Shown piece after piece: positions 41,420-43,718 of a DNA stretch of 64,000 nucleotides. The position numbers were made by a program, and so were the translations under genes. The DNA is from Clostridia bacterium (lineage in GTDB: Bacteria > Bacillota > Clostridia > Oscillospirales > Acutalibacteraceae), in the NCBI GenBank assembly GCA_017466365.1, contig JAFTUG010000011.1:62001-126000 (forward strand), written 5' to 3'. Every line of letters starts with the position of its first letter. The first letter of the stretch is position 1. The notes under the pieces were generated by a model that was not told where the DNA came from, did not search any database, and was given only the letters and a program-made list of their open reading frames with translations.

Positions 41420-41448
41420 TTGACAAATCAGGAAAAAATCGCTATTAT
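41420..41448 (+). promoter_or_regulatory. Near-consensus promoter of the phage-derived cassette
   Basis: TTGACA (41420-41425), a 17-base spacer and TATTAT (41443-41448) form a strong vegetative promoter. The transcription start should fall near 41455, just before the LexA box. Confidence 0.9.
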
Positions 41449-41460
41449 GTTAATTGCAAC

Positions 41461-41474
41461 CGAACAAATGTTCG
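41461..41474. promoter_or_regulatory. Perfect LexA (SOS) box
   Basis: CGAACAAATGTTCG matches the Gram-positive LexA/DinR operator CGAACnnnnGTTCG at every fixed base. It lies about 13 bases after the -10 box, over the predicted start of transcription, where bound LexA would block RNA polymerase. The five downstream genes would then be induced by DNA damage. No similar box was noticed elsewhere in the window. Confidence 0.88.
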
Positions 41475-41493
41475 TTAAATAGGAGGTGATTCC

Positions 41494-41724
41494 GTGGATA
41501 AGAATTGTTATCCGCTCTCAATTGAAGTTCCCGTCAGCGAAATCGAGCAGCAGGTGGAGTATGCAAGAACCGTCTGTTCGGACCTTTTCAGACTCTTTTC
41601 GCCCGAAGAGCCTGATACGGAATTTCTGACAAGTGAATACGGCTCCGTTCGTACCAGGCTTTCCATGATGCTCGATTTCCTTTTTCAGGCAAAGCTTTGG
41701 TGCGAAACCTTAAACAAAAAATAA
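41494..41724 (+). CDS. Small protein of unknown function, first gene of SOS cassette
   Basis: A 76-residue acidic protein from GTG 41494, with an ideal AGGAGGTGAT site 7 bases upstream. It is predicted mainly helical (IEQQVEYARTVCSDLFRLF, VRTRLSMMLDFLFQAKLW) with no membrane span or known motif. It lies 10 bases before the tail-fibre-like gene, in the same transcript. It could be a chaperone or a small structural protein; I do not recognise it. Confidence 0.75.
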   Translation: MDKNCYPLSIEVPVSEIEQQVEYARTVCSDLFRLFSPEEPDTEFLTSEYGSVRTRLSMMLDFLFQAKLWCETLNKK

Positions 41725-41734
41725 AGGAGAAATA

Positions 41735-42604
41735 ATGGAAGATTTCAGAATTGATTTTACTTTGTCAAACCCCTTTCCCGATGGCTGCAGGCTCGGAGAA
41801 TGCGGCGAAAAAAATGCCGCACAGCTTATAATTACTCCGCCCGAAAATCTTGCATCGAGGGAGGAAATCAGGTCATATGTTGTTGCGTTTTCAACAGAAA
41901 AAGGTCCCGTCAGATTCGGTCCGTTTCCTAAAGCGGAATTTCTTAACGTTCCCGTCGGCTCTGCTCTTACCGTCGGCACGGCACTTTCTGTTCAGCTTGA
42001 GGGCTTTGATGCAGACGGAGAATTCGTTATCAAAAGCCCTGTTTTAAGCGGCATTACCGTTTCAAGCTCAATCCGTGACTGTCCTTCCTGCGACGGGTCG
42101 GAGAATGACGGCGGCATTATTCCCGGTCATATGCATCAAAATCTTGATGTTCTCGACTCTCTTGCCGATGAAAACGGCGTTCTTACCTACAAAGGAAACA
42201 GCGTTTCAAGCGGCGGAACGGTAAAAACCGTTGTGCTTCCTTCCAATACATTTATGCTTCCGACCGATATTCCCAATACCGGTATTTTGCATGTAATTGC
42301 TTTGAATAACGACGAGGGCGAGCCGTATGTTCCCGAAGGCGCCCAAATTTTGAGCGTTGAGTATAAAATAATTTCAGAGGACTCTGTCTGGACGGATATC
42401 AGAGATATGATTAAATACGGATATCATTATCCCTATGTAATCAATCAGCATAAGTCATATTATTCGGAAATTTTCGGAGGAATTGTTACCGCAACCGTTA
42501 CCTTCATTAATGAAATGAAAAACGAATTTTTTGATGCTGCGGCAAATTATCAGATAGATGCCATAAGAATAAAATACATTGCTGAAAGTGAGGAAGAGGA
42601 ATAA
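41735..42604 (+). CDS. Phage tail-fibre or baseplate-like protein
   Basis: A 289-residue protein with no signal peptide. Residues 1-115 look like a beta-sandwich (LIITPPENL, VVAFSTEKGPVRFGPFP, ALSVQLEGF). The central GHMHQNLDVLDSLADENGVL followed by a TYKG loop matches a motif common in phage minor structural and receptor-binding proteins (H-x-H-x-N-x-x-x-L-D ... L-x-Y-x-G). The C-terminal 110 residues are again beta-rich. Its position before holin and endolysin genes fits the distal end of a siphophage tail module. It ends on the ATG of the next gene (one-base overlap). Confidence 0.7.
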   Translation: MEDFRIDFTLSNPFPDGCRLGECGEKNAAQLIITPPENLASREEIRSYVVAFSTEKGPVRFGPFPKAEFLNVPVGSALTVGTALSVQLEGFDADGEFVIKSPVLSGITVSSSIRDCPSCDGSENDGGIIPGHMHQNLDVLDSLADENGVLTYKGNSVSSGGTVKTVVLPSNTFMLPTDIPNTGILHVIALNNDEGEPYVPEGAQILSVEYKIISEDSVWTDIRDMIKYGYHYPYVINQHKSYYSEIFGGIVTATVTFINEMKNEFFDAAANYQIDAIRIKYIAESEEEE

Positions 42605-42819
42605 TGGAAGCGGAGGTTCTTGTTTCGCTTATTACTCTCTTCGGCTCGGCAATCGGCACTTTTGCAGGGATAGCCGTCAATTCAAAGCTGACAAATTACC
42701 GCATTGAGCAGCTTGAAAAAAAGGTTAACAAGCATAACAACGTTATCGAACGCACGGTGAAGCTTGAAGAAAGAGTCGGTGCGCTTGATTACAGACTTAA
42801 AGAAATTGAAAATCATTGA
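42604..42819 (+). CDS. XhlA-like holin-associated membrane protein
   Basis: A 71-residue protein: one N-terminal membrane helix (about 5-26, VLVSLITLFGSAIGTFAGIAV) and a charged coiled coil (YRIEQLEKKVNKHNNVIERT). This matches the layout of phage haemolysin XhlA-type proteins that act with holins and endolysins in Bacillus PBSX-like phages, although the order of helix and coil is reversed relative to XhlA itself. It overlaps the preceding stop and is followed after 9 bases by the holin gene. Confidence 0.7.
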   Translation: MEAEVLVSLITLFGSAIGTFAGIAVNSKLTNYRIEQLEKKVNKHNNVIERTVKLEERVGALDYRLKEIENH

Positions 42820-42828
42820 GGAGAAAAT

Positions 42829-43029
42829 ATGGATATTAACTGGAAAAGAAAGCTCACAAGCAGAAAATTCTGGGCGGCGGTGGTCGGTTTTATTACCCCG
42901 ATTCTTCTTGCCTTCGGTGTTTCCGACAGCGTTACAACGCAGGTGACCGCAATTGTTATGGCGGGAGCGGCGGTTGTTTCTTATATTATCGGTGAAGGCT
43001 TTATCGATGCCTGCGGTAAGGAGGAATAG
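42829..43029 (+). CDS. Phage-type holin
   Basis: A 66-residue protein, MDINWKRKLTSRKFWAAVVG at the start, with two hydrophobic helices (about 14-32 and 37-56) separated by a short turn (GVSDSVTTQV) and an acidic end. Start WKRKLTSRKFWAA is typical of small Gram-positive phage holins. Such proteins form membrane holes that release or activate endolysin. GAGGAG lies upstream. The endolysin gene follows after 5 bases. Confidence 0.85.
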   Translation: MDINWKRKLTSRKFWAAVVGFITPILLAFGVSDSVTTQVTAIVMAGAAVVSYIIGEGFIDACGKEE

Positions 43030-43034
43030 CGCAC

Positions 43035-43718
43035 TTGAAAACAAACACGGGTCTTGTTGACTATGCACGCTCACAGCTTGAGAAGCCTTATTGGTACGGC
43101 ACCTTCGGCAATACTGCCTCAAAGAGCCTTCTCAACGCAAAAAGAAAGCAGTATCCGAGCCACTACGGGGATAAACGCCTTGAAAAATATAAATCACAAT
43201 ACGGCGAGAGAGTTCACGACTGCGTGGGTCTTATCAAGGGCTATCTCTGGAGTGAAAATCCCGTAAGCAAGCCGAAATATGATGAATCGCAGGATGTTTC
43301 CGCAAACGGTATGCTGAAAAAATGCACCGAAAAGGGCAAAATTTCAACAATGCCCGAAATGCCGGGAATTCTTGTTTTCAAAAAAGGACATGTCGGTATT
43401 TATGTCGGCAACAAAAGGGTTATTGAGGCAAGAGGCTTTAACTACGGCGTGGTTGAAACGTCTCTCGGCAAAAGAGGCTGGACCGATTGGGGAAAATGTC
43501 CGTGGATAAGCTACCCTGCGGAAGGGAATTATTTTATGACCTGCGCACATGACGAGGTATCAATCGTTGATGCGCTCAAATCGATAGGGGAAAAAAGCTC
43601 CTTCGATATCCGCAAAAAGATTGCCGCCGCAAACGGTATGCCCGATTATTCGGGGAGCGAAAAGGAAAACGTCAAGCTTCTTTCGCTGTTGAGAACGGGT
43701 ATGCTCATCAAGCCCTGA
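43035..43718 (+). CDS. NlpC/P60-type phage endolysin
   Basis: A 227-residue protein starting at TTG 43035 (AAGGAGG 10 bases upstream). It has no signal peptide, as expected for a holin-dependent endolysin. The catalytic domain (about 1-155) has LVDYARSQLEKPYWYGTFGN, HDCVGLIKGYLWS with the catalytic Cys, and FKKGHVGIYVGNKRVIEARG with the catalytic His. The C-terminal 55 residues (VSIVDALKSIGEKSSFDIRKK, IAAANGMPDYSG) look like a small wall-binding domain related to Cpl-7 or LysM-like linkers; this part is uncertain. It cuts peptide bonds in the wall and completes the lysis cassette. Confidence 0.88.
   Translation: MKTNTGLVDYARSQLEKPYWYGTFGNTASKSLLNAKRKQYPSHYGDKRLEKYKSQYGERVHDCVGLIKGYLWSENPVSKPKYDESQDVSANGMLKKCTEKGKISTMPEMPGILVFKKGHVGIYVGNKRVIEARGFNYGVVETSLGKRGWTDWGKCPWISYPAEGNYFMTCAHDEVSIVDALKSIGEKSSFDIRKKIAAANGMPDYSGSEKENVKLLSLLRTGMLIKP

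What the first reader, a model, noticed from the sequence alone, without database searches (positions are those of the whole stretch)
41420..43718. Stand-alone SOS-controlled phage lysis cassette
A strong promoter (TTGACA-17-TATTAT) and a perfect LexA box precede five closely packed genes: unknown 76-aa protein, tail-fibre-like protein, XhlA-like membrane protein, holin and NlpC/P60 endolysin. The reading frames are intact, with gaps of no more than 10 bases. No integrase, repressor, terminase, portal, capsid or tape-measure genes lie within the 41 kb before it or the 20 kb after it. Retention of intact frames under an SOS operator suggests a kept host function: damage-triggered lysis releasing vesicles, DNA or a toxin, or fibre-directed killing. 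The function is an inference; the architecture is read directly.
Basis: partly seen in the sequence, partly recalled or inferred. Interest (0 to 1): 0.82.

Follow-up and report, generated by a model that had tools for sequence, protein, structure and literature searches.

The report
Probable release genes of tamed phage
A small gene set that probably bursts a gut bacterium after DNA damage looks like one of at least two scattered, long-conserved pieces of a tamed phage that may package and release the bacterium's own DNA.

Summary
In detail: a TTGACA-17-TATTAT promoter and a perfect LexA box (41461-41474) precede five intact, packed genes: helical 76-aa g1, tail-fibre-like protein, small phage protein, holin, NlpC/P60 lysin. 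It is not a lone oddity. The g1-to-lysin set is in 12 of 45 genus genomes, each between host genes. Three share the LexA box and group together; the other nine carry a divergent XRE/ImmA pair with three palindromic operators. All 12, and 35 of 45 in the genus, hold elsewhere a conserved portal gene, where read part of a nine-gene capsid/packaging module. This split matches FpGTA, the Faecalibacterium gene transfer agent (PMC12946183): head operon I, fibre-holin-endolysin operon II. Best reading: the cassette is the fibre-and-release arm of a dispersed, vertically inherited GTA-like element, under direct LexA control here. Shown: architecture, conservation, purifying selection, two alternative operators. 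Inferred: one joint particle, induction by damage, host DNA as cargo, direction of the switch. Against: no shared operator at the head module; 23 cassette-negative genomes keep the portal; no tail locus found; homology to FpGTA untested.

The parts
41420..41448 (+). promoter, -35 TTGACA (41420-41425), 17-nt spacer, -10 TATTAT (41443-41448)
   Evidence: same -35/-10 arrangement at the same distance from g1 (-74) in G027
41461..41474 (.). LexA operator CGAACAAATGTTCG
   Evidence: identical in G027 and CGAACATTTGTTCG in G023; shares its core with lexA promoters in 12 of 12 genomes
41494..41724 (+). g1, 76-aa protein of unknown function (GTG start), predicted helical hairpin; hallmark of the cassette
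   Evidence: g1 profile in 12 of 45 genus genomes, no confirmed match in viral contigs
41735..42604 (+). fib, 289-aa tail-fibre/baseplate-type protein: conserved N-terminal part (1-112), HxHxN motif, variable C-terminal part
42604..42819 (+). 71-aa protein of phage family phrog_1863, XhlA-like by size and position
42829..43029 (+). 66-aa holin
   Evidence: phrog_297, 6e-9
43035..43718 (+). NlpC/P60 endolysin, 227 aa, with a C-terminal part matching phrog_2307

Best explanation
The cassette is the fibre-and-lysis locus of a dispersed, domesticated phage (gene transfer agent-like, GTA-like) that this genus of gut/rumen Clostridia inherits vertically. A second module on another contig (G000:C12:247834-254503; nine genes: TerS, TerL, portal, a 288-aa protein of unknown function in the place of a protease or scaffold, a small virion protein, capsid, two short proteins in the place of connectors, and a terminal 280-aa protein with a weakly fibre-like end) would build the head and fill it with chromosomal DNA. 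After DNA damage RecA triggers LexA cleavage; the promoter at 41420 is freed; g1, fibre, holin and lysin are made; the fibre joins the particle, and holin plus lysin burst the cell and free it. In nine relatives the same operon is held by a phage-type XRE repressor with an ImmA/IrrE-like protease; in the line of G000, G027 and G023 a LexA box stands where that operator would be. Shown: architecture, conservation, alternative operators, purifying selection. Inferred: induction by damage, joint particle, DNA packaging, gene transfer, and that XRE/ImmA came first.
For: Cassette: g1 profile in 12 of 45 genus genomes, each with g1-fib-two small genes-lysin, flanks host genes in all 12 (by eye); four more genomes keep the full-length lysin without g1 and fib (G024 with a holin), also among host genes. 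Regulation: LexA box in 3 of 12; XRE (HTH_3) plus Peptidase_M78 pair divergent in 9 of 12, and this ImmA is found in just those 9 of 45 genomes (the XRE protein itself was not searched). All 9 have operators GTGTCGN4CGACAC just after the -10, GTGTCGN4CG(A/T)AAC near g1 and GTTTC(G/T)N4(C/A)GCAAC near the repressor gene (first operator in 0 of 18,000 shuffled regions). LexA-type genomes fall on one side of a branch in the lexA+portal tree (97/95). Selection: dN/dS lysin 0.075-0.088 (4 pairs), g1 0.07-0.22 (3 pairs), fib 0.15-0.34 (3 pairs; the fourth saturated). Head module: portal in 12 of 12 cassette genomes and 35 of 45 in the genus, one gene each (in G005 in two pieces, in G028 cut at a contig end); all nine genes in 21 of 23 loci read, the other two cut by contig ends; portal of the 11 other cassette genomes 78-90% identical to G000's. 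Portal and lysin distances correlate r=0.89, 0 of 5000 permutations. Precedent: FpGTA I/II.
Against: No LexA box or XRE operator upstream of the head module in the three genomes scanned (G000, G027, G008), so joint induction is unproven. The portal is wider than the cassette: 23 of 33 cassette-negative genomes have it, and co-occurrence is weak (12 of 12 vs 23 of 33, p=0.03; 16 of 16 vs 19 of 29 for full-length lysin, p=0.006; genomes at least 90% complete only, 7 of 7 vs 6 of 8, p=0.27). Shared species history alone could give the distance correlation, and correlations with lexA are lower (lexA-lysin 0.45, lexA-portal 0.39). The lysin tree alone puts the LexA types on one side of a branch in only 44% of bootstraps, the portal tree weakly (61/10). 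No tail or baseplate locus was found; PF10145 tape measure in 1 of 12 genomes, other tail families not searched. Sequence homology to FpGTA proteins could not be tested. Packaging of host DNA is not testable here.
Confidence: 0.64

Rival explanations
1. A self-contained, domesticated damage-triggered lysis system (altruistic death, release of DNA, enzymes or vesicles) with no link to the head module; the fibre is a released adhesin or bacteriocin-like protein.
For: No common operator with the head module; 23 of 33 cassette-negative genomes keep the portal; sets of xhlA-like gene, holin and lysin without g1 or fibre stand next to host genes in other Clostridia MAGs (L127, L128, L129, L138).
Against: The fibre keeps a conserved N-terminal part (mean identity 0.47; dN/dS 0.07-0.14) and a variable C-terminal part (0.25) in all 12, which a pure lysis device would not need; all 12 have a head module; FpGTA II has similar content and some of its structural proteins were detected with the particles.
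Confidence: 0.19
2. A prophage helper or counter-measure: on SOS induction of resident prophages the cassette lyses the cell early or supplies a different fibre to their tails.
For: Prophages of the genus carry proteins with the same N-terminal domain at the end of tail modules (L031, L035, L036, L039); G000 itself has a prophage.
Against: In G000 the fibre family has one match, the cassette itself, so its prophage has none (genome 79.6% complete); cassettes occur in genomes where no PF10145 tape-measure gene was found (11 of 12; other families not searched).
Confidence: 0.09
3. A decaying remnant of a recently lost prophage.
For: The parts are of phage type; the XRE/ImmA pair is a phage/ICE-type switch (the comparison is recalled).
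Against: Same gene order in 12 species; no stop codons in lysin and fib (12 each) or g1 (10 examined); dN/dS far below 1; lysin and portal trees show the same three groups.
Confidence: 0.03
4. The release arm of a tailocin (headless phage-tail bacteriocin) encoded elsewhere.
For: A fibre with a variable half plus holin and lysin is what a tailocin locus also contains (recalled).
Against: PF10145 tape measure in 1 of 12 genomes; what is conserved is head and packaging genes. Sheath and other tail families were not searched.
Confidence: 0.05

Closest known systems
FpGTA of Faecalibacterium (Borodovich et al. 2026, PMC12946183; I read the abstract, sections 9, 10 and 26 and search passages)
   Same: Two separate operons: I with TerS, TerL, portal, capsid; II with tail fibre, holin and endolysin; no replication genes; 5 of 12 Faecalibacterium genomes carry both and in the other seven locus II was not detected, much as here.
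   Different: Here locus I is about 6.7 kb with nine genes (FpGTA I 10.5 kb, ten ORFs); locus II has no recognisable baseplate gene and is about 2.3 kb (FpGTA II 5.5 kb); LexA is not mentioned in that paper (0 occurrences). Protein-level homology not tested.
CcGTA of Caulobacter (PMC9632790; passages read)
   Same: Genes in a main locus and several auxiliary loci; release by cell lysis; a LexA-like repressor (RogA) above the activators.
   Different: RogA acts through gafYZ and lacks the cleavage residues; no holin/endolysin homologue was found there. Here the cassette's own promoter bears the LexA box. RcGTA, the best-studied case, also has unlinked loci (recalled).
GTA of Dinoroseobacter shibae (PMC6473078; passages read)
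   Same: A LexA site was predicted in the GTA cluster promoter.
   Different: An in silico site at the GTA gene cluster, within a quorum-sensing and CtrA network; here it sits on a fibre-lysis operon.
PBSX of Bacillus subtilis (named in PMC12946183 as GTA-like and tailocin-acting; the rest recalled)
   Same: Gram-positive, damage-induced, packages host DNA, XhlA/XhlB/XlyA lysis genes (recalled).
   Different: One contiguous locus with full tails, controlled by its own repressor (recalled).
ImmR/ImmA switch of ICEBs1 and phages (recalled)
   Same: XRE repressor plus M78 (IrrE-like) protease next to a divergent operon with repeated operators.
   Different: Here the pair sits beside a fibre-lysis operon only, with no integrase seen beside it.

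Membership tests
Gene transfer agent | Phage-derived head and packaging genes kept at a chromosomal locus and inherited vertically | tested here: met
   Portal in 35 of 45 genus genomes; nine genes in 21 of 23 loci, two cut by contig ends; host genes around them by eye; portal dN/dS 0.04-0.06
Gene transfer agent | No integration or replication genes with the particle genes | tested here: met
   Gene maps of 12 cassettes and 23 head loci in the genus, read by eye; whole genomes not annotated
Gene transfer agent | Particles package random host DNA and can transfer it | not testable with these tools
   needs culture and sequencing of particle DNA
Gene transfer agent | Particle genes and release genes under common host control | tested here: inconclusive
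   LexA box or XRE operators at the cassette; neither upstream of the head module in G000, G027, G008
FpGTA-like | Two separate loci, head operon and fibre-holin-endolysin operon | tested here: met
   Cassette and portal on different contigs in 12 of 12 genomes; true distance unknown
FpGTA-like | Baseplate gene in locus II | tested here: not met
   g1 and fib are the only non-lysis genes in the operon; g1 matches no family, fib is weakly BppU-like
FpGTA-like | Sequence homology to FpGTA I/II proteins | not tested
LexA/SOS regulon | LexA present and its box shared with SOS genes | tested here: met
   lexA in 12 of 12, box core before lexA in 12 of 12, and before a Y-family polymerase in G000 (by eye)
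LexA/SOS regulon | LexA binds and damage induces | not testable with these tools
   needs gel shift or transcript data
ImmR/ImmA-type switch | HTH_3 repressor plus Peptidase_M78 protease adjacent, divergent, repeated operators | tested here: met
   Pair in 9 of 12, Pfam for the G019 pair, operators 9 of 9; ImmA absent from the three LexA-type genomes; G036 ImmA has an in-frame TAG
Tailocin | Tail tube, tape measure (and sheath in R-type) | tested here: inconclusive
   PF10145 in 1 of 12 genomes; other tail families not searched

The most novel reading that the evidence does not exclude
A gene transfer agent wired straight into the SOS response: damaged cells package random pieces of their genome, equip the particles with a fast-evolving recognition fibre, and burst on LexA cleavage, so that damaged kin receive repair templates. 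Within one genus the switch changed from a phage-type XRE/ImmA module to a LexA box, with G008 (XRE operators plus a LexA-like site inside the promoter) as a possible intermediate.
Probability: 0.33. Interest if true: 0.9.

Novelty: new variant of a known kind. Interest (0 to 1): 0.74.

Why it matters
GTAs outside Alphaproteobacteria are little known; one in gut Faecalibacterium was reported in 2026, and in the parts that I read nothing is said of what controls it. Here a genus of rumen/hindgut Clostridia shows an old, vertically kept head module plus a separate fibre-lysis operon whose control can be read in the DNA: two alternative damage-type switches on the same operon. That makes 'what triggers GTA release in gut Clostridia, and is it DNA damage?' directly testable, and gives hallmarks (g1, the XRE operator, the 334-aa capsid) for finding such elements. 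At least one 'phage' record in GenBank is a bacterial chromosome piece carrying such a module.

Tried and rejected
Remnant prophage: rejected (12 conserved loci, dN/dS, trees). End of a complete prophage: rejected for the cassette; such ends with a related fibre exist, but without g1 (L031, L035, L036, L039). Tail cluster of the element: not found; PF10145 gave one place, in G062; the baseplate-like genes that follow the head module in L390/L392 have no match in the fetched stretches of the genus except to the terminal 280-aa gene (that output was cut, after the rows for these queries). Shared operator at the head module: none. Genome-wide box count: CGAACNNNNGTTYG is not enriched (5+5 hits against 13+11 for the reversed pattern), so only conserved, gene-adjacent boxes are used. 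g1 fold search not run: a 76-aa helical hairpin would match much. The fib model is middling (pTM 0.47); its best PDB hit had TM 0.27 and its best viral hits TM about 0.3, so its fold is support only. A simple promoter pattern failed on G023 and G062, whose -10 reads TATCAT by eye. Papers: searches; in those listings PMC12946183 is the only one that I recognised as reporting a GTA in these families. Of it I saw abstract, sections 9, 10, 26 and passages; of PMC9632790 and PMC6473078 passages only; of the rest the listings.
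Full report
What is there. The five frames and the operator are as described. The lysin is an NlpC/P60 protein, the 66-aa protein a holin by PHROGs, the 71-aa protein belongs to an unnamed phage family, and the first two proteins match nothing in Pfam, PHROGs or NCBIfam. AlphaFold gives g1 as a helical hairpin (pLDDT 84). The fibre model (pTM 0.47) has a beta-rich N-terminal part; its viral fold neighbours are tail proteins and BppU N-terminal domains (best E 5e-8, TM-scores only about 0.3).

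Not alone. In the genus (45 genomes) the lysin, fragments included, is found in 20 and g1 in 12; the fibre family is in 15 of 60 relatives searched, all of them in this genus. I read 8-20 kb at 26 places. In 12 genomes, the window's included, the whole set g1-fib-two small genes-lysin stands between host genes (recognised by eye). Four more (G024, G025, G015, G001) keep the full-length lysin without g1 and fib, G024 with a holin. g1 gave no confirmed match in viral contigs (28 pattern hits); fib gave 2 there and none in the phages collection. Lysin relatives are common: 122 viral stretches confirmed, best 80 kept, and 93 of 394 genomes of the order, often matching only part of the protein.

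Two switches. Window, G027 and G023 have the LexA box and no repressor gene beside them. The other nine have a divergent XRE-ImmA pair (Pfam HTH_3 and Peptidase_M78 for the G019 pair), and that ImmA occurs in exactly those nine of 45 genomes (G036's copy has an in-frame TAG). Their promoters share TTGACA and a -10, with GTGTCGN4CGACAC directly after it, a second, similar site 32-45 bases before g1 and a third near the repressor start (9 of 9; in G062 the -10 was seen by eye only). In the LexA type the box sits downstream of the -10 too. lexA itself is present in 12 of 12 with CAAACAAATGTTTG in its promoter. G008, whose small membrane genes are of the LexA-type kind, has both the XRE operators and GAAACAAATGTTCG between -35 and -10 (0.0007 expected per region at one mismatch). 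In the lexA+portal tree the LexA-type genomes are one side of a branch (97/95), in the fib tree too (96/94); the portal tree alone is weak (61/10), and the lysin tree needs 2 changes (44% of bootstraps with one). Roots are by midpoint, so the direction XRE/ImmA to LexA is inferred.

Selection. dN/dS for close pairs: lysin 0.075-0.088 (4 pairs), g1 0.07-0.22 (3), fib 0.15-0.34 (3, one saturated), portal 0.04-0.06 (4), lexA 0.006-0.05 (4). Within the fibre the first 112 residues are held (mean identity 0.47; dN/dS 0.07-0.14, 4 pairs) and the last 130 vary (mean identity 0.25); over residues 130-289 dN/dS is 0.12-0.41 in three pairs and saturated in the fourth. In one pair (G022-G062, dS near 3) the C-terminal value is slightly below the N-terminal one (0.115 vs 0.136). 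Apart from that pair this is the pattern of an attached receptor-binding fibre. Loose fibre genes with the same N-terminus, away from tail modules, occur in G024, G025 and G036.

The other half. A Pfam portal search in the 12 cassette genomes gave one weak hit in each, below the curated cut-off (G019 has a second, strong one elsewhere). All 12 weak hits lie in the same gene order. In G000 the module spans C12:247834-254503: TerS (phrog_51), TerL (phrog_2), portal (phrog_30703, 9e-130), a 288-aa protein (phrog_16951, unknown function), a small virion protein (phrog_4588), capsid (phrog_3922, 7e-102), a short protein weakly like an adaptor (phrog_541, 0.002), an unmatched 110-aa protein and a 280-aa protein weakly like a fibre at its end (library values for the G027 copy). 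A portal profile finds it in 35 of 45 genomes, one gene each. Of 23 loci read, 21 have all nine genes and two are cut by contig ends; neighbours are host genes by eye. Portal relatives at 44-76% lie in eight viral contigs, at 47-52% in five faecal 'Bacteriophage sp.' records and at 27.5% in a Microcystis phage; one of these records, MT835508, is plainly a bacterial chromosome piece with ribosomal protein genes.

Link to a known kind. PMC12946183 reports FpGTA: operon I with terminases, portal and capsid, and a separate operon II with baseplate, fibre, receptor-binding protein, holin and endolysin; 40-nm particles without visible tails, 8.4-8.9 kb DNA, structural proteins of both operons detected. 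The split here is alike, with cassette and portal on different contigs in 12 of 12 genomes. That paper does not mention LexA, though its discussion calls GTAs SOS-inducible in general. LexA effects on GTAs are reported in Alphaproteobacteria (D. shibae passages and the R. capsulatus paper cited there); in the listings I saw no report of a LexA box on a GTA lysis operon.

Limits. No common operator joins the two loci in the three genomes scanned. The portal also occurs in 23 of 33 genomes where no cassette was found, and the co-occurrence tests are weak and confounded by MAG gaps. Distances of portal and lysin agree closely (r=0.89), which shared descent alone could give; correlations with lexA, a very conserved protein, are lower (0.39-0.56). 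FpGTA proteins were not compared. So membership in the FpGTA kind is an architectural case, not a proven one, and that damage induces the cassette rests on the operator alone.

Noticed in passing
L021-L022 (G000:C2 about 102500-123600): Integrated prophage whose genes are open only if TAG is read through (coding density in 3-kb bins 0.41-0.82 standard vs 0.73-0.99 with TAG open); it carries a lysin 60% identical to the cassette's. No suppressor tRNA found in the stretches fetched.
   Followed up: partly
L307 (G036:C43:11664-12092): The ImmA gene of this XRE-type cassette has one in-frame TAG.
   Followed up: no
L393 (MT835508.1): A GenBank 'Bacteriophage sp.' faecal scaffold is a bacterial chromosome segment (ribosomal proteins, Rnf-like genes, by eye) that carries a head module.
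   Followed up: yes
L037:9840-12191, L040:3-659, L034:9778-12370: Lone fibre genes with the cassette fibre's N-terminal domain among host genes, in G024, G025 and G036 (L040 is at a contig end).
   Followed up: partly
L127, L128, L129, L138: Three-gene sets xhlA-like/holin/lysin without g1 or fibre beside host genes in other Clostridia/Eubacterium MAGs; L127 and L128 end at the contig edge, L129 has no clear gene after the lysin, and L138 has a phage-like gene about 1.7 kb downstream.
   Followed up: partly
L390, L392: Head module followed by baseplate-like genes in IMG/VR contigs; the genus's terminal 280-aa protein matches a short tail-side protein at its N-terminus and the distant fibre gene at its C-terminus, as if the genes between were lost.
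   Followed up: partly
L280 (G000:C7:91061): LexA box CGAACATTTGTTTG just upstream of an 80-aa gene and a Y-family polymerase gene (by eye).
   Followed up: no
L027:8554-8567 (G008): LexA-like site GAAACAAATGTTCG inside the promoter of a cassette that also has the XRE operators and pair.
   Followed up: partly
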